Part shown: in pieces, positions 1 through 21,414 of the stretch
Position numbering within the stretch: the first letter of the stretch is position 1
Layout of the letters: every line of letters begins with the position of its first letter
Assembly: GCA_031257675.1 (NCBI GenBank)
Contig: JAIROG010000012.1
Coordinates: 1 to 36,690, forward strand
DNA from: Treponema sp.
GTDB taxonomy: Bacteria; Spirochaetota; Spirochaetia; Treponematales; Breznakiellaceae
Direction: 5' to 3'
DNA length: 36,690 nt
Notes under the pieces: generated by a model
Told to the model about the DNA's origin: nothing
The model's database searches: none
The model's input: only the letters and a program-made list of their open reading frames with translations
Program-made: the position numbers and the translations under genes

Positions 1-186
1 TTATTTAGCCATAAAGTTTATTTGGTTATTCCAGTACAATCAAGCCAGGATGAAATATCAAGGCTGGATTATTTATGTTATTTATTTGGTACAGGATTTG
101 TTCTTTATGATTGTACAAATCCTGATAATCCAAATTATCAATTAAAAAATAGAGATCAAAAGCATCCCCTGACCCATATTATATAA
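1..186 (+). CDS. C-terminal end of a hypothetical protein (HrgA-like, restriction-associated?), partial
   Basis: Frame 1 is open from the window edge to the TAA at 184-186, giving 61 residues with no start codon in the window. The readable part runs VYLVIPVQSS, then SRLDYLCYLFGTGFVLYD, then an Asn/Pro-rich tail. An 'LxIP...RLxxLCxxFGxGxxLxD' pattern is typical, from memory, of the C-terminal part of HrgA-like proteins found near restriction-modification systems; the family link is inference. Codon use is AT-rich compared with the genes that follow, which suggests an acquired gene. The rest of the protein lies upstream of the window. That it is a real coding end is fairly sure; the family is not. 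Confidence 0.5.
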   Translation, partial: LFSHKVYLVIPVQSSQDEISRLDYLCYLFGTGFVLYDCTNPDNPNYQLKNRDQKHPLTHII

Positions 187-254
187 ATCAAAATATAAAT
201 AAAGCAAGAGTTTTTTTAATGAACTATTAACATAAATTATAAAGCAAAAAACTG

Positions 255-276
255 CGCATAACGGCATGGTTATGCG
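255..276. repeat. Small perfect hairpin in the 187-431 intergenic region
   Basis: CGCATAAC at 255-262 is followed by GTTATGCG at 269-276, an 8-bp perfect inverted repeat with a 6-base loop. It lies about 70 bases after the partial gene. No T-run follows on the plus strand, so it is a weak terminator candidate. Nothing else recognisable is present between 187 and 431. Confidence 0.35.
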
Positions 277-431
277 AAACAACCCCCCTGCAAAACGTCC
301 GACAAGACGGCGGGCGCGGACCCTTTTGATTTTTATATTATCATGCATTTTATAGCATCTTTTATTCTACTGGCAAATGATACTATTAACATTGCCATAA
401 CGATGCATGATTGTTCGTTACTATTCTATAA

Positions 432-590
432 TTATTTATTATACACCTGAACACAAATATACCCGGCAATAACATTACAATTTTTGATGCGGCAAAAATT
501 GCAATCTTTTGGATCAAGCCGTCTCTTAAGTTCATTTACATCCAATCCTGAACATTTCTTACAAATTTTAATCTTCTTTTGTCCAAACAT
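432..590 (-). CDS. Small Cys-rich protein (52 aa), possible metal-binding
   Basis: The 52-residue product begins MFGQKKIKICKKCSGLD and contains CxxC (KICKKC), then CNFCRIKNC and a last Cys near the end (GYICVQ), six cysteines in all. The spacing suggests a small zinc-binding or ferredoxin-like fold. The CKKCSGLDVNELK opening recalls short thioredoxin-like [2Fe-2S] or DUF1450-type proteins, but this is a guess. A longer in-frame ORF starts at 650, but the ATG at 590 is preceded by AGAGGACTGTT, a good ribosome binding site, so this start is chosen. It stands alone, AT-rich, between intergenic stretches. Function unknown. Confidence 0.5.
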   Translation of the reverse strand: MFGQKKIKICKKCSGLDVNELKRRLDPKDCNFCRIKNCNVIAGYICVQVYNK

Positions 591-604
591 AACAGTCCTC
601 TTCC

Positions 605-620
605 ATTGAACAACTCTATT
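605..620. repeat. 16-base repeat ATTGAACAACTCTATT, copy 1
   Basis: This 16-mer is followed by TCTAAAAAAA. The same 16-mer occurs on the opposite strand at 9805-9820, followed there by CTATAAAAAA. It lies just upstream (minus-strand sense) of the small Cys-rich gene. The similarity extends beyond the exact match, so this may be the end of a small dispersed repeat. The 621-850 stretch holds nothing else recognisable. Confidence 0.4.
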
Positions 621-850
621 TCTAAAAAAATTCGAGTTTTTATTTCGCATAACATTCCGGTCGCCTAACAGGTCTGCGAACTCCCCGAAAACAAGGCGGA
701 GTCCCCCCGCGTGAGAACGCCTTCCGCCTATTCTCCACCTGCATCAAGACGCCAAAGCGTCCATGTCTTCGGCCATACGGCGCATCTTCCAAATGCGGGC
801 GCAACCAAAGCAATACGCGCAATGCCATCCTGAATCTTTTTGCAAAAGTA

Positions 851-859
851 TGGTATAAT
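851..859 (+). promoter_or_regulatory. Extended -10 promoter for the GH43 gene
   Basis: TGGTATAAT is an extended -10 element (TGn followed by a perfect TATAAT at 854-859). The -35 region is poor (TGAATC-like at 831-836). Transcription would start near 866, giving a leader of about 67 bases before the ATG at 933. Confidence 0.5.
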
Positions 860-932
860 GAAAATCACTAGCTGATGAGATCGGCGCATGTACAGCGGCT
901 CACTGGTAATGCGCCTAAAAGGAGAAATGAAT

Positions 933-2534
933 ATGTCCCGAATTGTCAATCCCGCGCTTGCCGGGTTTCATGCGGATCCATCAATACTCAGGGTGGGAGA
1001 GTATTTTTACATCGCCCATTCAACGTTTGAGTGGTATCCGGGCGTTGAGTTGCACCGCTCCAAAGACCTTGCCCACTGGGAATCCCTTCCCTCGCCGCTA
1101 CGGGAAAAGCGGTTGCTCGATATGGAGGGAGAACGCGCTTCCTGCGGCGTCTGGGCGCCCTGTTTAAGCTGTAGCGACGGCCTTTTCTGGCTCGTGTACA
1201 GCAATGTGCGTACATGGAACGCTGGTCCCTGGAAAGACTGCTCCAACTATCTCACCACGGCTCCATCCATCGAAGGACCTTGGTCTGACCCGGTGTTTCT
1301 CAATTGTTCCGGTTTTGACGCATCCCTGTTCCATGATGACAACGGCAAAAAGTGGCTTGTGAACATGGAGTGGGACTACCGGCAGAGCGCCGACCCCGAA
1401 GGACCCCAGTTTGCGGGCATTTTGCTTCAGGAATACAATGTGGCGGAACAAAAACTTTCCGGTCCTGTGCGTAAGATTTTCACCGGTTCCCCGATAGGCT
1501 GTGTGGAGGGCCCCCATCTTTACAAGCGCAACGGCTGGTATTACCTTCTTACCGCTGAGGGCGGCACGGTGTACAACCACGCGGCCACGGTGGCCCGCTC
1601 CCATTCCCTTGAAGGTCCCTACGCTATACATCCGCACAATCCGCTTGTCAGCTCTAGGGGCAAGCCTGAACTGCGATTGCAAAAAGCGGGGCATGCCAGT
1701 TGGTGCGAAACCGCTGACGGCCGCACCTATCTGGCGTATCTTTGCGGGAGGCCGCTTGCCGGCACGAAAAACTGTGTTCTTGGACGGGAAACTTCAATCG
1801 CTGAGTTGGTGTGGCATGAGGACTGGCCCTATGTAAAAGGTGAAAACGGGTCACGGCAGAATTATCCGGCGGACAGCTTTGAATCGCCCCTGCAAAACGC
1901 CGGACCAGCCGCTTCCGCAGGGGAGCAGGCGTATACTTTTGACGGATCCGCCATTCACGGGGATTTTAAGACCCTGCGTGTCCCCGCTGATCCGGCGCGG
2001 TATTCCTTCCGTGAGCGTCCCGGTTATCTCAGATTGCGGGGCGGGCAGTCTCCGGTTTCACCCTACGGACAAACCCTGCTTGCCCGGCGGCAGAGAGACT
2101 TCTCCTTTGATGCGGAAACCTGCGTGGATTTTGCGCCGCAATGTTTTCAAGAACTGGCGGGTCTTTGCTGGCGTTACGATGAACGCAACCAGTACCTGCT
2201 TGCCGTAACCCATGACGAAGCCCGCGGACGGACGCTTACCGTGTTGTCCATGATTGCCGGCCGTTTTTTCCGCGAGGAAGGTCCCGCCTTGCCAAAAGAA
2301 GGTTCGGTGTGGCTGGGGCTTTCGGTGAGGGAGCATAGCGGCGTGTTCCGGTATTCAATGGATGGCGAACATTTTACCGATGTTGGCAAAACCCTGGACA
2401 GCCGGACGCTCTCCGATGAATTTGACACCATGGGCTTTACCGGCGCCTTTGTGGGGATGTTCTGCGTGGATACCGCCCGCTATGAAGCCACAGCGGATTT
2501 TAAGCGCTTTTTATACCGGCCGTACGTCGCGTAA
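933..2534 (+). CDS. Glycoside hydrolase family 43 (beta-xylosidase / alpha-L-arabinofuranosidase)
   Basis: The 533-residue enzyme should remove xylose or arabinose from xylo-oligosaccharides in the cytoplasm; no signal peptide is visible. The GH43 five-bladed propeller occupies roughly the first 320 residues. Its Asp base is in FHADPSIL near residue 14, the Asp that tunes the acid is probably in FDASLFHDDNGKKW, and the Glu acid is in GCVEGPHLY. A C-terminal beta-sandwich (about 340-530) matches the GH43_C2 / DUF1349-like domain of XynB-type xylosidases, and total length is normal for that group. The ATG at 933 is chosen because AAAAGGAG lies 8 bases upstream; the ATG at 927 is too close to it. 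It is a single gene, convergent with znuB. Family certain, substrate inferred. Confidence 0.9.
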   Translation: MSRIVNPALAGFHADPSILRVGEYFYIAHSTFEWYPGVELHRSKDLAHWESLPSPLREKRLLDMEGERASCGVWAPCLSCSDGLFWLVYSNVRTWNAGPWKDCSNYLTTAPSIEGPWSDPVFLNCSGFDASLFHDDNGKKWLVNMEWDYRQSADPEGPQFAGILLQEYNVAEQKLSGPVRKIFTGSPIGCVEGPHLYKRNGWYYLLTAEGGTVYNHAATVARSHSLEGPYAIHPHNPLVSSRGKPELRLQKAGHASWCETADGRTYLAYLCGRPLAGTKNCVLGRETSIAELVWHEDWPYVKGENGSRQNYPADSFESPLQNAGPAASAGEQAYTFDGSAIHGDFKTLRVPADPARYSFRERPGYLRLRGGQSPVSPYGQTLLARRQRDFSFDAETCVDFAPQCFQELAGLCWRYDERNQYLLAVTHDEARGRTLTVLSMIAGRFFREEGPALPKEGSVWLGLSVREHSGVFRYSMDGEHFTDVGKTLDSRTLSDEFDTMGFTGAFVGMFCVDTARYEATADFKRFLYRPYVA

Positions 2535-2679: not shown

Positions 2680-3522
2680 TCACCGTCTCGCCCGTATCGC
2701 CGAAGCGATGAGAAAAACCGCTCCTGATGTGATGACCGTCACCGCGCCTACCGGCAGGTCAAACATCCAGCCGAGAACAAGCCCTGCTACAGAAAAAAGC
2801 GCTGAAAGAAGGCAACTTGCCAGCATCATCATGGAGAGGCTTTTTACGCTTTTGGCGAAAGACGCTGTGCCGGCGGGCAAGGTGAGCATGGCTATAACCA
2901 TGACAATGCCGACAAAACTCTGGAGCAACACAATGGCTGTCGCCGTGACGAGAAGCGTTATCAGGAACACGACGGCGACAGGCACACGGCGGACGCGGGC
3001 GAATTCTTCGTCAAAAGACGACGCTTCAATTTGCGGATAGAATCGCCACGCAAGCGCGATGACAATGCAGTCCAATACCGCAAGAAACAGCAGGTCGCGG
3101 CTCGAGATGAGCAGAATGTTGCCGAAAAGATAGGTTGAAGGATCCGTATAACCCGGGGTTTTCGCCATGAAGACCACGCCAATACTCATGCCAATTGCCC
3201 AAATCGCGTTGATAACCGTGTCTTCCCGCTGTTTCGCCTTGAGCGAAACAAAACCGATGACGCAGGCGGACAACGCCGCAAAGATCAGCGCCCCCAATAG
3301 GGGTGAAAAATTTGGGATTATGTTTGCGGCGGACAGGAACAGCGCCATGCCTATGCCGCCCAGCGCGGCGTGAGAGACCGCGCCCGCGAGACTTGCTATG
3401 CGCCGCGCCGTTACGAGAGAGCCTATCACGCCGAACAAGATGGAAGACAAAAGCCCGGCAAAAAAGGCGTTTCTGATAAAGGGAAAGTCAGGATTGAAAA
3501 AAGCGGAAAAGAACGAAGTCAT
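2680..3522 (-). CDS. znuB: Zinc/manganese ABC transporter permease (ZnuB type)
   Basis: The 280-residue inner-membrane protein of the ABC-3 family forms the channel of a high-affinity metal importer. It is mostly hydrophobic with about eight membrane segments. The LAGAVSHAALGGIGMALF stretch near residues 45-62 is the typical EAA-like/ABC-3 signature region that contacts the ATPase. The start overlaps the end of znuC by 4 bases (ATGA), so the two are translationally coupled. It is the last gene of the minus-strand run. The 145 bases to GH43 (2535-2679) hold only a weak inverted repeat (CCGGAT...ATCCGG near 2600-2630) and no clear T-run terminator. Confidence 0.9.
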   Translation of the reverse strand: MTSFFSAFFNPDFPFIRNAFFAGLLSSILFGVIGSLVTARRIASLAGAVSHAALGGIGMALFLSAANIIPNFSPLLGALIFAALSACVIGFVSLKAKQREDTVINAIWAIGMSIGVVFMAKTPGYTDPSTYLFGNILLISSRDLLFLAVLDCIVIALAWRFYPQIEASSFDEEFARVRRVPVAVVFLITLLVTATAIVLLQSFVGIVMVIAMLTLPAGTASFAKSVKSLSMMMLASCLLSALFSVAGLVLGWMFDLPVGAVTVITSGAVFLIASAIRARR

Positions 3523-4289
3523 AGGCAGGCGTCCCCCGGAACGCTTTCTTCATGCAAGACGTGCAGATTTTCCTGATCCACCACGCTCAGTTCATGCTGA
3601 ACGATCTTGCCTTTTTCAATGCACAGCGCCCTGTCAACGAGAGACGACACAAAGTCACGGTCATGCGTAACGATGAGGATCGTGGCGCTTCCTTTGAGAT
3701 CCCCGAGCGTATGAAAAAGCCGCGCTTCGCTTTCCGCGTCCATGTTGGCGGTGGGTTCATCCAAAATAAGCAACGGCGGTTTTGAGGCAAGCGCGCGGGC
3801 AAGCAACACCCGCCGCCGCTCCCCGCCTGAAAGCGCGTTGTACGGCCGTTTTGCCAAGTGATGAAGCCCCACCTGTTCGAGCGCCTCCGCCGCCGCATCT
3901 CTATCCTCGGCAGTGAGTTTCCTTGAAAGGGAACGCAACCGCCCCATTCTGACAACGCCTTCAACGCTCACGGGAAACGCCTTGTCATACGCCGCTTGCT
4001 GAGGCACATAGCCGGCTTTGTCTATGCCCGGCGTGTCTCTGTTTCCGCGCTTTTTTTCGCCGGTTTTGCCGGTCTCGCCGAAAAGAAAAACGCTTCCGCT
4101 TTCCGGACGCTCAAGCCCCAGCATCAGTTTAAGCGCGGTGGTCTTGCCCGCGCCGTTCGCGCCGGCAAGCGCGATGAACTCTCCCTGATGTACATGGAAG
4201 CTCGCCGCGTCCAGCACTCTCGTTTCACCATAAGAGAAGGAAACGTTGTCAAAACGCAGAACAATGTCCTTACTTGAGTGATGTATCAT
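3519..4289 (-). CDS. znuC: Zinc/manganese ABC transporter ATP-binding protein (ZnuC type)
   Basis: The 256-residue ATPase energises the metal importer. All motifs are intact: Walker A GANGAGKTT, signature LSGGERRR, Walker B LLILDEPTA and the H-loop His in IVTHD. The frame can begin with GTG at 4301 or ATG at 4289. The Shine-Dalgarno AAGGAG at 4306-4301 overlaps the GTG and stands 11 bases before the ATG, so 4289 is chosen. It overlaps znuA by 20 bases and znuB by 4, a compact coupled operon. Zinc rather than manganese is inferred from the binding protein. Confidence 0.92.
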   Translation of the reverse strand: MIHHSSKDIVLRFDNVSFSYGETRVLDAASFHVHQGEFIALAGANGAGKTTALKLMLGLERPESGSVFLFGETGKTGEKKRGNRDTPGIDKAGYVPQQAAYDKAFPVSVEGVVRMGRLRSLSRKLTAEDRDAAAEALEQVGLHHLAKRPYNALSGGERRRVLLARALASKPPLLILDEPTANMDAESEARLFHTLGDLKGSATILIVTHDRDFVSSLVDRALCIEKGKIVQHELSVVDQENLHVLHEESVPGDACL

Positions 4290-5184
4290 AGACGCGCGCA
4301 CTCCTTTTCAGCGCTTCTCCCATTGCCCTGATATTTTCAAGCCAGTCGCGGGAAAGGGGATCAAGCGCGATGACAGCCGCGCCGGTCGCATCAGCCACTG
4401 TTTTCGCGGTCGCGGCGGGAAACTGAGCTTGGACAAAAATAGCCGCAGGCTTTTCCTGTCCGGCTTTTTCAATAAGCGCGTTGAGCGCCCGCGGTCCAGG
4501 CTCCTTGCCGCCGGTCTCCACAGCCTCCTGCCTGATGTTGAATTCATCAAGGAAATAACCGAACGCCGGGTGGTACACAAACACCGGCTTCCCGCTCAAC
4601 GGCGCAAGCTCCTGCCGCAAAGACTCGAATTCCGCGTCGATTCTTGCGACAAGCTCTTGGCAATTCCGTTCATACAGACCCGCGTTCTCCCTGTCAAGCG
4701 CGGAGAGCTGATCCCTGATATGCGCCGCCAGTATCTTCGCGGGTTCCCTCCCAAGCCACGAATGTCTGTCAATGCCGTCATCCTCGCCAGCAACGCCGTG
4801 TTCAAGCGTCCTGAAACGCGCCCCTTGCGTCCCGTCAACAATAGCAAGATTTTTGAAGAGCTTTTCTACCTTCGGACGCAGGCTTATCTCGAATTCAGAA
4901 CCGGAAAGCACCCATGCTCTAGCCTGCGCCAACGCTTCCAACTGTTTCGGACTCGGCTCAAAGGTATGGGGATTCTGACCGGGACCCGCAAGCGTCAGTA
5001 TGTCAAAAACGGAACCTGCGGCGGCGCCGGATTCCCGCGCAATCTGCTCCACAAACCACGCCTGCGGCAAGATGCTCACCGCGACAATGGGTTTTGTTGA
5101 GGATGAATTCGATTTTGAACATGACAGGACAAAAAATATGCACAACAACGCGGACAATCCCGCCGCTTTTATACAACGAATCAT
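4270..5184 (-). CDS. znuA: Zinc ABC transporter substrate-binding lipoprotein (ZnuA type)
   Basis: The 304-residue cluster A-I solute-binding protein captures the metal outside the inner membrane. A signal peptide ends in the lipobox VLSC, so Cys22 should carry lipid. Likely metal ligands are the His residues in NPHTFEPS, DRHSWLG and VYHPAFGY and the Asp in DPLSRDW, the three-His plus Asp/Glu pattern of this family. The long His/Asp-rich loop of many ZnuA proteins is short here. The Shine-Dalgarno GGAG lies inside the last codons of the acyltransferase gene (7-base gap), so expression should depend on the upstream gene. Confidence 0.9.
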   Translation of the reverse strand: MIRCIKAAGLSALLCIFFVLSCSKSNSSSTKPIVAVSILPQAWFVEQIARESGAAAGSVFDILTLAGPGQNPHTFEPSPKQLEALAQARAWVLSGSEFEISLRPKVEKLFKNLAIVDGTQGARFRTLEHGVAGEDDGIDRHSWLGREPAKILAAHIRDQLSALDRENAGLYERNCQELVARIDAEFESLRQELAPLSGKPVFVYHPAFGYFLDEFNIRQEAVETGGKEPGPRALNALIEKAGQEKPAAIFVQAQFPAATAKTVADATGAAVIALDPLSRDWLENIRAMGEALKRSARVYDTSLK

Positions 5185-5191
5185 CTGTTTC

Positions 5192-6559
5192 TCACTCCGC
5201 TTCCGCTCTGCTGTTCGTCAGCTCAAAAAATTCTTCCTCCATGTCAACCATCACTTTTTTTACGGTTTCTTTTCTGTCACGATGATAGGCGTCAAGATGA
5301 CCGCTCAGATTGATGGGGGCGGCTGTTTTGACGATCACCTTGTACGGATGAATGAGCTTTCTTGTTCCGAAAACGCCGCCCATGGTCCGATTCGCAAAAT
5401 CCCACAGGTTCTGCACATATTCAACCTGCTGATACAGCGGACTCTCCGCCGCGGGTACCGGCGCACAGCGGAGATACCACACAAAGTCAACTATTTCAAG
5501 ATGACGGCTCGCATGCCACGCTTCGCCCGCATTGAGATCTGCTATTGAACGGTCAAGCTGAACCATGTCATCCAGCGACGCTTTTCCCGCAACGAAGATG
5601 CGATCCCAACATATCTGCCGCAGGCAGTACATTCTGGTAAAAAAATCGCCCTGTTTCGTTACGCCAAGGGTCTTTGCGGTGCGATCCAAACATTTTTCTA
5701 TAAGAGCGTCAACCCGCCCGGTAAAATTCTCCGCGTTCTTGTCGGCTTTTATGCCATACCGCGCTTCGTTCTTTTCAAGGATGGCATCCCTGCACAGGAG
5801 AAACCTCTCTTCAAGTGTCAATACCCGCCCTTTTCCACGGCTTTCCACCCCGACGCACCGCTCAACGCGCCGCAACAGTTTTTCCACCGGCTTTTTTGCG
5901 CTCGCGTTAAAACAATACTGCACCGAGACCGGCAACACTTCAACCGGACACAGCCTGCCGCTTTTTTCAAGCCGTTCCGCCACAGTGAAGCCTATGCGCG
6001 CCGGACCCTGCTCCAGATGAGGCATCCGGTCTGAAAAGTAAGAAACCTGTCCTTCCGGGGCGATGGCCACCGGGTACGGTCCGTCCATCAAAGCCTTGTA
6101 GATGCGCTCCATGCTGCGCGAGTCGAATTTCGCGTGGTACACGGGCATGGCGCCGACCCTCGGAAGGATAAACCGCGCGAGCGTCCCGCCCCAGCGCAAG
6201 ACTTCATATCCATGCACAAACCTAAGGTGGGGCGGAACCGCGCATACGGCGCCCGCTTTTCCGGCAAGCGCCTTGAGGCGGGACAGGGTGAACCAAGCCA
6301 GTATTTGCGGCTCCGCGCCGTTTGGGTGCAGAAAGGCGGCGATGCAACGGCTTTCGTTTTTGAAGGCGCGGGTAAAACTTTCAATCAAATACCCCCCCCC
6401 CCCCCCGTGCGCTTCGATTTTCGCGCCGCCAATGAATTGGCGCAGATACAAGCGTCCAATCAGGCGGCACAGCAACCGCGCCCATAGGGAAACCCGGGGT
6501 TCAGGCACAAGAATCTCAGGCGCGGCTATTGTTACGGGCCGCATATAAGGTGTATGCAT
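5192..6559 (-). CDS. PlsC-like lysophospholipid/glycerolipid acyltransferase with poly-G tract
   Basis: The 455-residue product resembles 1-acyl-glycerol-3-phosphate acyltransferases. The block HPNGAEPQ stands where the catalytic HX4D normally is, here HX4E, and APEGQVSY matches the substrate-binding PEG motif. It is about twice the usual PlsC length, with a long C-terminal region of unknown role. A 15-G run (6392-6406 on the plus strand as C) encodes five Gly just before the catalytic block, near residue 52-56. At 15 G the frame is open; a change by one or two bases would truncate the protein before the active site. It lies between the glycosyltransferase (11-base gap) and znuA (7-base gap). 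The general fold is fairly sure; the substrate is unknown, and it may act on a glycan or lipoprotein. Confidence 0.75.
   Translation of the reverse strand: MHTPYMRPVTIAAPEILVPEPRVSLWARLLCRLIGRLYLRQFIGGAKIEAHGGGGGYLIESFTRAFKNESRCIAAFLHPNGAEPQILAWFTLSRLKALAGKAGAVCAVPPHLRFVHGYEVLRWGGTLARFILPRVGAMPVYHAKFDSRSMERIYKALMDGPYPVAIAPEGQVSYFSDRMPHLEQGPARIGFTVAERLEKSGRLCPVEVLPVSVQYCFNASAKKPVEKLLRRVERCVGVESRGKGRVLTLEERFLLCRDAILEKNEARYGIKADKNAENFTGRVDALIEKCLDRTAKTLGVTKQGDFFTRMYCLRQICWDRIFVAGKASLDDMVQLDRSIADLNAGEAWHASRHLEIVDFVWYLRCAPVPAAESPLYQQVEYVQNLWDFANRTMGGVFGTRKLIHPYKVIVKTAAPINLSGHLDAYHRDRKETVKKVMVDMEEEFFELTNSRAEAE
6392..6406. repeat. Poly-C/poly-G homopolymer (15) inside the acyltransferase gene
   Basis: Fifteen consecutive C on the plus strand read as GGG x5 in the gene, between codons for His and Tyr. 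Tracts of this length are prone to slipped-strand mispairing and are a classic phase-variation element in Campylobacter, Neisseria and Treponema pallidum. The present length is in frame. Confidence 0.85.
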
Positions 6560-6570
6560 AACGCCGGCTT

Positions 6571-7359
6571 CTACTGTTCCTTTGCCGGAACATCTTTCTT
6601 GTCTTTGAAAAGTTTATAGAATAACAAAAGAAGCGTATAGTAGATATACGGAAACAGCCGCAAGATGTGCACCGGTTTTTTTAAGCAGAACTCAACCCAT
6701 TCAAGACCGTGCTTAAACATGTATTCCGCCGGGTGGCGCTTCTTGTTCGCAAAAACTTCGTATATGTCGCTGCACCAGAGACGAATGCCAAGTCCCAGTT
6801 TGCCGCCCTTGCGCTGTATCCACAATTCCTCGCCCTGAACGCCCTTGCCGACAAGCACAAGGGACGGCGCGGCTTTCCGTATGGCTTCAAGAATGGCGTC
6901 TTCTCTGCTTTTCTTGAAACGTCCGGCGCAACGTCCCACAATTTGCAGGCATGGAAAAGTATGCTTGACATTCTTTTCGGCTTTTTCGAGGATTTTTTTC
7001 TTTCCGCCCATAAGGTACACCGACTGTTCCCGAAGCTCAAGCATGGAAAGAAGCGCGATAATGAAATCAAACGGCATGTACCGAATCGGTTCTTTGCCAA
7101 ATAAAAAACGCGAGCCGCTGACTAAACTTTTCGATATGGGGATAATCACATCAGCGTTAAGCACGTATGAGCGATATTCGCTGTTCCACCGCGCCCAAAG
7201 CAAATCCCACAGGGACAACAGCACGATATGTTTGGCTTCTCCGCTTCCCAGCAAGTCGCCGATAACAATGGGCAAATTTTCTTTTTCAACAATATCTATC
7301 GGCACATTCAACAGGTTTATCCGTTCTTTTACCCGCGCTACGAAGTTTTCAGCATCCAT
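6571..7359 (-). CDS. WecG/TagA/CpsF family glycosyltransferase (GT26)
   Basis: The 262-residue enzyme belongs to the family that transfers N-acetylmannosamine(uronate) or related sugars to lipid-linked acceptors at the cytoplasmic membrane. The family pattern is visible in SYVLNADVIIPISKSL, YLMGGKKKILEKAEKN, the YP.L.I.GR.AG.F-like block (FPCLQIVGRCAGRF), and VLVGKGVQGEELWIQR. The basic C-terminus with a hydrophobic stretch (IYYTLLLLFYKLF) may anchor it to the membrane. Its start lies 22 bases inside rsmE, with GGAGAGTGAAGA before the ATG. With the downstream acyltransferase it suggests an envelope glycan or glycolipid. Sugar and acceptor are unknown. Confidence 0.85.
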   Translation of the reverse strand: MDAENFVARVKERINLLNVPIDIVEKENLPIVIGDLLGSGEAKHIVLLSLWDLLWARWNSEYRSYVLNADVIIPISKSLVSGSRFLFGKEPIRYMPFDFIIALLSMLELREQSVYLMGGKKKILEKAEKNVKHTFPCLQIVGRCAGRFKKSREDAILEAIRKAAPSLVLVGKGVQGEELWIQRKGGKLGLGIRLWCSDIYEVFANKKRHPAEYMFKHGLEWVEFCLKKPVHILRLFPYIYYTLLLLFYKLFKDKKDVPAKEQ

Positions 7360-8123
7360 TCTTCACTCTCCAAAAGCAAGATACGAATTGCGGCCGCCGC
7401 ATATACGGCTGCGGTTTCGGCTCTCAACACATTTGCCCCTATGACAAGGGGCTGAAAACCCGCCTGTACGAACCGTTCGGCTTCTTCCGGGGAAAAGCCC
7501 CCTTCCGGGCCCACAACCGCAACGACACAATCAGGGTTTCCCGCAAGACAGCGGTGAAAGCTGCCGTTCCTCGCAAACGGCTCCTGATGAAGCAATATGC
7601 CCGCCGGATTCTTGCTCCGCATTCTAATAGTCTCCCAATGGGAAAAAACAGCGTCAAACGTACACGCCTCTCTAACGCTGGTCCCAACAGCGGAGCCGCT
7701 TTGCTGACGCGCCTCTTTAACGATCCGCTTCCACCGGTTGATTTTTTCGGCGGCTCCTTCTGTTCCTTTTAATTTCGGCACAGTGTACGCGGAAACAAAG
7801 GGAATAATCTCCGCAACCCCGCCTTCCGCGGCCTGCCGTATGATTTGGTCTATCTTGGCGCCCTTGGGCAGGGCCTGAAAAAGGATTATGGGCGGCGACG
7901 GCGAGCCAGCCATCCGCTCGACAGGCGCAAGACATTCGCAGACAATGGCGTCGCTGTACACGGCTTGCACCAGCGCCCGCGTTTCGGTTCCGTCCGGCAA
8001 GCGCGCCGTGAACACATCGCCCTCACGCAACCGCCGGACATTCGCAAGGTAGTGGTAATCGTCGCCGGTCAAACGCGCCACCCCATGAGCGTCTGCCGGA
8101 CGCGGCAGAAGGAATTGTTTCAT
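7338..8123 (-). CDS. rsmE: 16S rRNA (uracil-1498-N3)-methyltransferase
   Basis: The 261-residue SPOUT-class enzyme methylates U1498 of 16S rRNA with S-adenosylmethionine. An N-terminal PUA-like part precedes the trefoil-knot domain. The knot motifs VVGPEGGFSPEE and LRAETA near the C-terminus are intact, as is QALPKGAKIDQIIRQAAEGGV in the middle. Length is normal. The start overlaps the ctp stop (ATGA) and the end overlaps the glycosyltransferase start by 22 bases, so it sits within a coupled operon of otherwise envelope-related genes. Confidence 0.95.
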   Translation of the reverse strand: MKQFLLPRPADAHGVARLTGDDYHYLANVRRLREGDVFTARLPDGTETRALVQAVYSDAIVCECLAPVERMAGSPSPPIILFQALPKGAKIDQIIRQAAEGGVAEIIPFVSAYTVPKLKGTEGAAEKINRWKRIVKEARQQSGSAVGTSVREACTFDAVFSHWETIRMRSKNPAGILLHQEPFARNGSFHRCLAGNPDCVVAVVGPEGGFSPEEAERFVQAGFQPLVIGANVLRAETAAVYAAAAIRILLLESEEWMLKTS

Positions 8124-19071: not shown

Positions 19072-21231
19072 TCACTTGATTACTTCCACTTTTTTGAGCG
19101 CACAATCCAACTCAAGATATTCCGCCTGCGCGATCCGGTTATAGAGCTTCTCCCCCGCTCCAACAACAGCGGGAAGCGACAATTCCCCGGCGCGGATCGA
19201 CATATGCGAATTTGCGCCGCCGTATTTTGTAATAAATCCTGCTATATTTTTTGAAAATATCCAGTCATAGCCGGGATCCGCGCTTGGTATCATCAGAATG
19301 GAGCCTTCCAACTCGCTGTCAGTCTCAAAACAGACCGGACCCGCGGCTTTATTCAACGTGATAAAATTGGGGGAGGCGTCATCCAAATGGAAATAATAAC
19401 AATCATCCGGCTTTGTGATTACCGGCGGCATGGTAAATCCCAGCGTGTCTTGGTGGCGTTCCTTCCCTTGCGCTATTGATTTTCCTATGCTGTCGCCCAC
19501 ATCCTTTTCAGAATTATACAACCCCTTCCATATTTCAATATCCATATAAGAAAGCTCTTCCTTGGCAAACCCGCATTCGGATCCGATCTCGCCAATCATT
19601 ACGAGCGCGTCGGAAACGTTTTTTGAAAATACAAATTTCGAATATTCACGCCCTTCTATGGCGCCTTTCAAAAACTTAAAGAGCGACAACACATCATCAG
19701 ACAAATCAACCTCTTTTAGCAGCGTTCTAATGTGTTCCAACTGGGAAACCGTCACACGGAACTCCCGCCCGTATAACGCCGTATTTCTCGCGTTTTCCCA
19801 ATTGAAGTAGCGATCCGGCGCTTCGTCATACCGGGGAGAGCATATATCATACATCCCGGGCCGCAAATGCCCGTATTTATTCAAAAACGCTTCTTTCCTT
19901 AATTGAGCGAAGTCTTCCGTCATATTCGTACTGACCGTATTCAGACTGGCTATATACCCGTGATATTCTTCCTGTGAAAATACTCCGCAGGAAACAAACG
20001 ATTTCAGCATCTGCACCGCGACAAATCCGGCCCGCGCAAGCCCGGCGAACGGCAGAGTCCCATAGCGTCGGCAGTCCTCCAGCAGCCAGTATACTTTTCC
20101 AATGCGGCTTAGATCGCTGCTCATTATTTCCTGATGGCGCCGCTTCAGAATATCTATCTTGCTGGCGTCCGCCGTCCACAGTCCGTTGCTCATGTCAATA
20201 ATACGATTAGTCAAGTCCCTCAAACTTTCCGTCAGCATCCGGCATTCCTCTTGGCTAAAGCCGTACTTCCGCAACACCTCCACCCGTTCCCGCAAATCAA
20301 ACGTGTAACAAGAAAATATGATTTCAAATTCAACTTTATCGTGCATTTCAGGATGTTCTATCAATTGGTTTAAGTAATAATTCACCAGTTTATCCGCCAA
20401 ATCTGTCTCTATGCTTTTGGGAATGAATGAATTGAAGCTCACTCTGGCGTCTATATACGGCAATCCCGCAAAATCTATTATCAACGGAAATGAACGCAAG
20501 TCTTTATAGCCATAGTTGTCCCGCTGATACGCCCATGTCCCGTCTGTAACCAAATTTTTATACAAGGACAACGCCAGCGGTTTTGGACGCACTCCGACAA
20601 TTTCCGCTGGATTCCAATCAGGCATAACGCCGTATACCGGCCTATCCCCGAAAATATACGGTTTCTTCCCCAAACTTTTCCGTATATACCTCGCAGTCCT
20701 TTTCAGGATCGCTTCTTGCCTGGCAATATCTTTGCAGACGCGCTTCATAACCAACGGCCTGACCTGCAATATGTACACCTCTTGATTGGCGGAAACCGCG
20801 AATTCAATATCCAACGCTTGGCTCCGAAAGTGCTCCGCTATTTCTTCAGCCGCCCCTATCACCTTGTCCAGAATGGGAAAGCCTGTCGCGCCTCCGTATC
20901 CTTTAAACTGGTAAAAGATTTTTAGATCAGTTCCCGATCCTGATGTAACTGAAGACGTCGAACCGGTTTTATCATCATAATTAACCACATAATAATTTCC
21001 GCCCGTATTGGGATCCATCGTAAACAGCACCCCGCTTAATGCGACATCCCGCAACATAGGCTGAATGAACACCTCATCCTCCGCTGTTTGCCGCTCTCCA
21101 TACGAAGCTATCACCCGTTCCACCGCATCGTTTACGCCTTGCTCTCCACGTACATGCAACACCGACTCATACATGCCGGCTTTTGACTCCTCTCCGGTGT
21201 CTTCGCTTATGGCGCTCGACCGTACTATCAT
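19072..21231 (-). CDS. L-glutamine kinase (Cj1418-like, PEP-synthase fold), main part
   Basis: The 719-residue ORF covers all but the N-terminus of a PEP-synthase-like kinase. The ATP-grasp part starts at once with IVRSSAISEDTGEESKAGMYESVL and ends with LDIEFAVSANQEVYILQVRP. A central domain includes GVMPDWNPAEIVG, and the C-terminal swivelling domain has the phospho-carrier His in GGANSHMSIRAGELSLPAVVG (His about 676). Cj1418 of C. jejuni makes L-glutamine phosphoramide from ATP and glutamine and is about 770 residues; 60 + 719 residues here match that. The ORF is intact to the stop. Its ATG directly follows a TAA that ends the upstream 60-codon part, in the same frame. The poly-G tract 10 bases upstream may act as a ribosome binding site. 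Confidence 0.78.
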   Translation of the reverse strand: MIVRSSAISEDTGEESKAGMYESVLHVRGEQGVNDAVERVIASYGERQTAEDEVFIQPMLRDVALSGVLFTMDPNTGGNYYVVNYDDKTGSTSSVTSGSGTDLKIFYQFKGYGGATGFPILDKVIGAAEEIAEHFRSQALDIEFAVSANQEVYILQVRPLVMKRVCKDIARQEAILKRTARYIRKSLGKKPYIFGDRPVYGVMPDWNPAEIVGVRPKPLALSLYKNLVTDGTWAYQRDNYGYKDLRSFPLIIDFAGLPYIDARVSFNSFIPKSIETDLADKLVNYYLNQLIEHPEMHDKVEFEIIFSCYTFDLRERVEVLRKYGFSQEECRMLTESLRDLTNRIIDMSNGLWTADASKIDILKRRHQEIMSSDLSRIGKVYWLLEDCRRYGTLPFAGLARAGFVAVQMLKSFVSCGVFSQEEYHGYIASLNTVSTNMTEDFAQLRKEAFLNKYGHLRPGMYDICSPRYDEAPDRYFNWENARNTALYGREFRVTVSQLEHIRTLLKEVDLSDDVLSLFKFLKGAIEGREYSKFVFSKNVSDALVMIGEIGSECGFAKEELSYMDIEIWKGLYNSEKDVGDSIGKSIAQGKERHQDTLGFTMPPVITKPDDCYYFHLDDASPNFITLNKAAGPVCFETDSELEGSILMIPSADPGYDWIFSKNIAGFITKYGGANSHMSIRAGELSLPAVVGAGEKLYNRIAQAEYLELDCALKKVEVIK

Positions 21232-21414
21232 TTAATAAACACCCCCCCCCCCCCCCGAATCGCCAGTCCAACCCTCCGCCGCTACCTTTTCCAAGACGCC
21301 ATCTTTATTTTCACGCCATTCTTTAATGGTGAAAATAACCATCGGCAAAATACGCGCTGATGTTATTTTGTCCCGTAACGCTTGGAGCGTCATGGCTTTT
21401 GTGCTGTTCGCCAT
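21232..21414 (-). CDS. N-terminal segment of the L-glutamine kinase, separated by poly-G and a stop
   Basis: This 60-codon ORF has the strong ribosome binding site AAAGGAGGAAAAATA before its ATG and encodes LQALRDKITSARILPMVIF and IKEWRENKDGVLEKV, the kind of N-terminal strand-helix that precedes VRSS in Cj1418-type kinases. It then runs through the G tract (GGGGG) to VY and a TAA immediately before the ATG of the main ORF. It is therefore most likely the true start of the kinase gene. Either the TAA is a nonsense change, or the protein is made as two chains by stop-start coupling. See the finding on the tract. Confidence 0.65.
   Translation of the reverse strand: MANSTKAMTLQALRDKITSARILPMVIFTIKEWRENKDGVLEKVAAEGWTGDSGGGGGVY
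21242..21256. repeat. Poly-C/poly-G homopolymer (15) at the kinase split
   Basis: Fifteen C on the plus strand read as G in the gene. With 15 G the upstream ORF ends at TAA touching the downstream ATG. With 14 it would end at a TGA overlapping that ATG. With 16 it would run past the ATG out of frame for about 20 codons. The tract is the same length as the one at 6392. Confidence 0.85.

What the first reader, a model, noticed from the sequence alone, without database searches (positions are those of the whole stretch)
6385..6412. 15-G tract in an acyltransferase gene upstream of znuACB: candidate phase-variable gene with polarity
The tract is inside the coding frame, just before the catalytic block, and equals the other tract in length. 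A slip of one or two bases would cut the enzyme at about residue 60. Since znuA's ribosome binding site lies in the last codons of this gene and the genes are nearly touching, loss of translation could also lower zinc uptake. Known: poly-G tracts switch surface genes in Campylobacter and in T. pallidum tpr genes.
Basis: partly seen in the sequence, partly recalled or inferred. Interest (0 to 1): 0.7.

Follow-up and report, generated by a model that had tools for sequence, protein, structure and literature searches.

The report
Slippery G-run in bacterial acyltransferase gene
A run of 15 Gs sits inside an envelope-enzyme gene of a termite-gut spirochete and would switch the gene off whenever it gains or loses one or two bases; it is one of about 58 such runs in this genome, so the surprise lies in the genome-wide pattern more than in this gene.

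Summary
There are 15 Gs on the minus strand at 6392-6406, in codons 52-56 of a 455-aa ORF (5192-6559). With 13, 14, 16 or 17 Gs the product ends after 57-59 aa; with 12, 15 or 18 it is full length. The ORF is a divergent PlsC-like (LPLAT) acyltransferase, 7 nt upstream of znuA, in a ctp-rsmE-wecG-AT-znuACB run conserved in relatives. The genome is a termite-gut Treponema MAG.

New facts: (1) the tract is lineage-specific; 24 other family members, including orthologs at 81-88% identity, lack it at that site. (2) One ortholog has its own G16 tract 577 nt further on, out of frame, but tracts are so common that this coincidence is at chance level. (3) The genome has 58 tracts of at least 12 G. Their lengths cluster tightly: mode 15 in this and two sister genomes, 12 and 11 in two others. 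(4) Other tract-bearing genes include glycosyltransferases, UDP-galactopyranose mutase and a DNA methylase.

Best reading: a hypermutable frame switch, caught ON, one of a genus-wide set of candidate contingency tracts. Selection for switching this gene is not shown. Polarity on zinc uptake is plausible but untested. New member of a known kind.

The parts
6392..6406 (-). 15-G tract (C on + strand), codons 52-56 (Gly5) of the acyltransferase-like ORF
   Evidence: orthologs read e.g. CAA GGG GAA GGG TAT at this place, 6 nt shorter
5192..6559 (-). 455-aa LPLAT/PlsC-like acyltransferase ORF (AT), ON (in frame) at 15 G
6311..6328 (-). invariant HPxGxE block (residues 78-83), H-x4-E; would be lost from the frameshifted product
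   Evidence: aligned with NHINFLE of a genus PlsC paralog (weak score)
6041..6058 (-). PEGxVS block (residues 168-173), like the PEG motif of PlsC acyltransferases
   Evidence: lies inside the Pfam PF01553 match at residues 109-181
5195..5198 (-). GGAG, putative znuA ribosome binding site, in the last codons of AT
4270..5184 (-). znuA, zinc-binding periplasmic protein
   Evidence: PF01297 E=3.9e-49
3519..4301 (-). znuC, ABC ATPase
   Evidence: PF00005 E=1.4e-30
2680..3522 (-). znuB, ABC-3 permease
   Evidence: PF00950 E=5.7e-51
6571..7359 (-). WecG/TagA/CpsF-type glycosyltransferase upstream of AT (11-nt gap)
   Evidence: PF03808 E=2.7e-35; order conserved in relatives
7338..8123 (-). RsmE-type 16S rRNA methyltransferase, upstream in the same run of genes
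   Evidence: PF04452 E=3.6e-39; order conserved

Best explanation
The tract is a hypermutable site that works as a random ON/OFF frame switch for an envelope acyltransferase. Slipped-strand mispairing during replication adds or removes single Gs. Lengths divisible by three keep the reading frame open and the enzyme is made; all other lengths end translation at about residue 58, before every conserved block. The assembly shows the ON state. It arose recently in this lineage by expansion of a G-rich stretch of three codons in a variable loop, so the two extra glycines are probably harmless when ON. It is one member of a genus-wide set of poly-G tracts that also hits glycan and envelope genes, so cells of one population would differ in envelope chemistry. 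When OFF, about 1.2 kb of untranslated message just upstream of znuA could lower znuACB expression through lost translational coupling or Rho. Shown: tract, frame consequences, lineage specificity, gene order, genome-wide context. Inferred: slippage in living cells, enzyme activity, a phenotype, polarity.
For: Frame consequences computed. Tracts are strongly non-random: 65 runs of at least 10 G against 7 of at least 10 T in the genome. Tract sites shared with sister genome G009 often differ in length, e.g. 14/15, 15/17, 16/14, 16/14, 15/14. At least 11 of 57 tracts lie within 120 nt of a contig end, 0.77 expected. G009's ortholog has its own G16 tract, out of frame, so an OFF state of this gene exists in an assembly. 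Tract-bearing genes in the two genomes include GT1, GT2 and GT8 glycosyltransferases, UDP-galactopyranose mutase, a DNA methylase, OppC permeases and a PF01553 acyltransferase. In T. pallidum clones, 24 of 46 poly-G/C tracts of 8 or more vary in length and no poly-A/T tracts do (PMC10013896).
Against: The tract site is not shared by any of 24 other family members, so there is no sign that switching of this gene has been maintained. The second tract in the same gene in G009 is not more than chance: with 57 and 78 tracts in about 2.4-2.9 Mb, roughly 4-5 non-identical pairs within 1.3 kb are expected and one was seen (own arithmetic). Nearly half of the tracts lie outside called ORFs. No read-level length data were available. 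MutS is present, so no gross repair loss is seen.
Confidence: 0.52

Rival explanations
1. Neutral by-product: in this genus poly-G runs expand at G-rich places because of lineage-specific slippage or repair, and settle at a genome-specific length. The run in this gene is a recent, unselected and mildly harmful event that happens to be in frame; frameshifts are mutational load, not a switch in use.
For: Tract is lineage-specific; same modal length in and outside genes; recurrence in the gene at chance level; tract lengths peak at a genome-specific value: 15, 15, 15, 12, 11.
Against: Many coding tracts fall in glycan, envelope and methylase genes, as in known contingency sets (no formal enrichment test). 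The frame here is intact although two of three lengths would break it.
Confidence: 0.33
2. The selected effect is on zinc uptake: AT frameshifts lower znuACB through polarity, so the tract is a zinc-uptake dimmer.
For: znuA GGAG overlaps the AT stop; AT-znuA spacing tight in G007 and G009; no minus-strand sigma-70-like site found between the genes.
Against: Promoter scan is crude and spirochete or Zur-regulated promoters could be missed. Tract is absent in relatives with the same gene order. znu genes are intact downstream of the out-of-frame AT in G009.
Confidence: 0.06
3. RNA-level bypass: RNA polymerase or ribosome slippage on the G run makes a mix of frames whatever the DNA length, so DNA slippage matters little.
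For: Long homopolymers can cause transcriptional slippage (general knowledge); the G009 ortholog is intact on both sides of its out-of-frame tract.
Against: No data here; no conserved stimulatory signal sought or seen; tract not conserved.
Confidence: 0.05
4. Assembly or sequencing artefact.
For: Some contig ends carry G runs of 23-54, which look artefactual; length within +-1 is uncertain.
Against: Both flanks align with orthologs up to the tract; similar tracts occur in genomes from other termite samples; a finished, single-contig relative (G048) has 19 runs of at least 10 G; termite-gut metagenomes of a large published survey used HiSeq, not two-colour machines (PMC9137090; not proven to be the source of this MAG).
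Confidence: 0.04

Closest known systems
Intragenic poly-G/C contingency genes of Campylobacter, Neisseria and Helicobacter
   Same: G run inside an ORF; +-1 changes truncate the product; envelope and glycan genes and DNA methylases among the targets
   Different: tract 15 long (from memory, Campylobacter tracts are mostly 8-11); no within-population length data; site not conserved between species
Treponema pallidum poly-G tracts (tprE/G/J, tprL, TP0126 promoters; TP0127, TP0969, mcp1 coding; PMC7864442, PMC10013896)
   Same: same phylum and order, G runs spread over the genome, some within genes, length variation between clones
   Different: the studied T. pallidum cases act mainly in promoters and are 8-11 G; here the tract is coding, 15 G, in a gut symbiont of another family
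PlsC / LPLAT acyltransferases (PF01553)
   Same: PEG motif; weak but recurrent PF01553 matches in 7 of 25 orthologs; H-x4-E block in the place of H-x4-D
   Different: about 455 aa with a conserved C-terminal half of unknown function; window protein below the Pfam cut-off

Membership tests
Slipped-strand (simple-repeat) phase-variable gene | long homopolymer tract beyond chance | tested here: met
Slipped-strand (simple-repeat) phase-variable gene | gain or loss of one unit changes expression | tested here: met
   predicted truncation at 57-59 aa; expression itself not measured
Slipped-strand (simple-repeat) phase-variable gene | tract length varies within a population | not testable with these tools
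   no reads held; indirect only: tracts at contig ends 11 observed against 0.77 expected
Slipped-strand (simple-repeat) phase-variable gene | tract at the same site with varying length in related genomes (supporting, not defining) | tested here: not met
   absent in 24 other family members; nine other tract sites are shared or nearly shared with G009
Slipped-strand (simple-repeat) phase-variable gene | reversible switching of a phenotype | not testable with these tools
   uncultured organism; needs experiment
tpr-type promoter poly-G switch of T. pallidum | tract in promoter, length changes transcription | tested here: not met
   tract is 153 nt inside the ORF
PF01553 / LPLAT acyltransferase | Pfam match above curated cut-off | tested here: inconclusive
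   window 14.3 bits, cut-off 23; 7 of 25 orthologs match, best E 8.7e-6
PF01553 / LPLAT acyltransferase | H-x4-D catalytic motif | tested here: inconclusive
   invariant H-x4-E (HPxGxE) instead; co-linear with NHINFLE of a genus paralog, weak profile score
PF01553 / LPLAT acyltransferase | PEG motif | tested here: met
   P168 E169 G170 invariant
PF01553 / LPLAT acyltransferase | LPLAT fold | tested here: inconclusive
   AlphaFold model from a shallow alignment has pLDDT 36 and is unusable
znuACB zinc importer | ZnuA, ZnuC and ZnuB domains in one operon | tested here: met
   gene order conserved in G007 and G009

The most novel reading that the evidence does not exclude
Termite-gut Treponema of this genus carry a genome-wide poly-G switching system in which every genome holds its tracts at its own preferred length (15, 12 or 11 G). 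Length, and hence switching rate, would be tuned per lineage, and dozens of envelope, glycan, methylase and transport genes, this acyltransferase among them, would be diversified at random in a mutualist rather than a pathogen.
Probability: 0.25. Interest if true: 0.75.

Novelty: new member of a known kind. Interest (0 to 1): 0.45.

Why it matters
Phase variation is mostly studied in pathogens. A termite symbiont genus with 50-100 long G tracts per genome would mean that random switching of envelope genes also serves, or burdens, mutualists. It would also give a natural series (modes 11, 12, 15) in which to ask what sets the stable length of a homopolymer. For this gene alone the consequence is modest: a predicted ON/OFF acyltransferase with a possible side effect on zinc uptake.

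Tried and rejected
Gene-specific selection from recurrence: an ortholog in G009 has its own tract 577 nt away, which looked like convergent acquisition, but tract density makes it a chance-level coincidence. Loss of mismatch repair: a MutS_V match is found in 12 of 12 genus genomes. Codon-usage scoring of frames around tracts was too weak to classify them. Structure prediction from the five sequences allowed gave pLDDT 36, so no fold search was made. PDB profile search: no relative. NCBIfam: no match for the window protein and only weak, unrelated hits in a few orthologs. In one search a non-G was also required at the end of the pattern, so it counts runs of exactly 12; that revealed the difference in modal length.

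Full report
Observation. The window has a run of 15 C at 6392-6406, that is 15 G in the sense of the ORF 5192-6559(-). The run fills codons 52-56 as five glycines. Shuffling the window gives 0.39 nine-G matches on average against 14 seen. I rebuilt the predicted products for 12 to 18 G. Lengths 12, 15 and 18 give 454-456 aa; 13, 14, 16 and 17 give 57-59 aa. The znuA start is 7 nt beyond the ORF's stop and its GGAG overlaps the last codon.

What the gene is. Pfam finds nothing for the window protein at 0.001, but PF01553 (Acyltransferase) appears at E=0.036 in it and in 7 of 25 orthologs, best 8.7e-6. Across the 25 sequences HPxGxE (78-83) and PEGxVS (168-173) are essentially invariant. A profile comparison with one genus PlsC-like paralog set is co-linear over these two blocks but weak (probability 13%). 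I call it LPLAT-like, at about 0.75. The predicted structure was unusable and no PDB relative was found. The neighbours are Ctp, RsmE, a WecG-type glycosyltransferase and znuACB; the order is kept in G007 and G009 (L047, L049).

Where it comes from. Named relatives are Treponema sp. MAGs with 82-87% identity in this protein; the genus is g1 of this tool, and I take it to be a termite-gut lineage from the MAG names and the published termite surveys, not from a record of the window itself. The alignment of eight genus members shows that the tract replaces nine nucleotides such as GGGGAAGGG, with six added, so the frame is kept. None of the other 24 family members aligned has an insertion here. 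The flanks match to the edge of the tract, which argues against a chimeric join.

A second tract in the same gene. In G009 the ortholog is split by a G16 run near codon 243; the two halves match residues 1-241 and 249-455 in different frames. In G004 the contig ends at residue 228. This looked like convergent evolution of a switch. But G000 has 57-58 and G009 78 surveyed tracts of at least 12 G. With that density about 4-5 non-identical tract pairs within 1.3 kb are expected and only this one was found (own arithmetic). It therefore shows that an out-of-frame copy exists, not that the gene is favoured.

Genome-wide context. The genome holds 65 runs of at least 10 G against 7 of at least 10 T. 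All 12 genus genomes have 12-G runs. Finished or single-contig relatives have 0, 4, 6 and 19 runs of at least 10 G, the genus members tested 53-112. Tract lengths are narrow: mode 15 with 14-16 making up 86% in G000, mode 15 in G009 and G001 (read off), but median 12 in G003 and 11 in G002 (20 sites each). That G000 has no run of exactly 12 while G003 has 57 and G005 39 agrees. The equal length of the two tracts in the window thus reflects a genome-wide mode.

Signs of instability. Nine tract sites are shared or nearly shared between G000 and G009; one of them, L074/L168, is offset by 28 nt. Most differ in length. At least 11 of 57 tracts lie within 120 nt of a contig end, where 0.77 are expected. 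This fits length mixtures in the population but also coverage loss after G runs. In T. pallidum clones, 52% of poly-G/C tracts of 8 or more vary and no poly-A/T tracts do (PMC10013896).

What else carries tracts. Among ORFs of at least 180 aa with a tract inside or at the edge are glycosyltransferases of families 1, 2 and 8, UDP-galactopyranose mutase, DegT aminotransferase, a CDP-glycerol glycerophosphotransferase-like protein, an N6/N4 DNA methylase, OppC permeases, a periplasmic binding protein, a histidine kinase, and in G009 a PF01553 acyltransferase. This resembles contingency-gene lists of host-associated bacteria, but I made no formal enrichment test, several ORFs have no Pfam match, one is a transposase, and 27 of 58 tracts are outside called ORFs.

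Mechanism and verdict. The most likely reading is a frame switch by replication slippage, ON in this assembly. The physical part is near certain from the length of the run; use as a switch is open. Rival: neutral expansion under a genus-wide slippage regime. Polarity on znuACB rests on spacing only; no minus-strand promoter-like site was found between the genes, which is weak evidence. No paper found in the searches made describes poly-G phase variation in termite Treponema; the library holds open-licence papers only.

Noticed in passing
G000, G001, G009 against G003 and G002: Poly-G tract lengths peak sharply at a genome-specific value (15, 15, 15, 12, 11) within one genus, as if each lineage had its own set point. 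A dataset effect is not excluded.
   Followed up: partly
window 21242-21256, ORF 19072-21231(-): The second 15-G tract ends an upstream ORF (MANSTKAMTLQALRD...GWTGDSGGGGGVY, then TAA) directly before the ATG of a PPDK_N/PEP-utilizer ORF that lacks about 100 N-terminal profile positions. The gene looks broken or coupled at the tract.
   Followed up: partly
L092 (G000:C78), 696-aa ORF 3-2090(-): N6/N4 DNA methylase with a 15-C tract (C in the sense strand) near its start: a possible phase-variable methylase.
   Followed up: no
G000:C15 (L059-L063): Five poly-G tracts on one contig within 35 kb, in and between genes that include GT2 and GT8 glycosyltransferases: candidate phase-variable glycan cluster.
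   Followed up: partly
L053/L131, L077/L124, L106/L167: At tract sites shared by G000 and G009, the 20-30 nt next to the tract look more diverged than the next 300 nt. Not tested for significance.
   Followed up: no
L152 (G009:C117), 283-aa ORF: A genuine PF01553 acyltransferase (E=1.5e-12) with an in-frame 15-G tract at 82% of its length.
   Followed up: no
L055 (G000:C11 start), L184 (G009:C193 end): G runs of 23-54 at contig ends, longer than any internal tract and probably artefactual.
   Followed up: no
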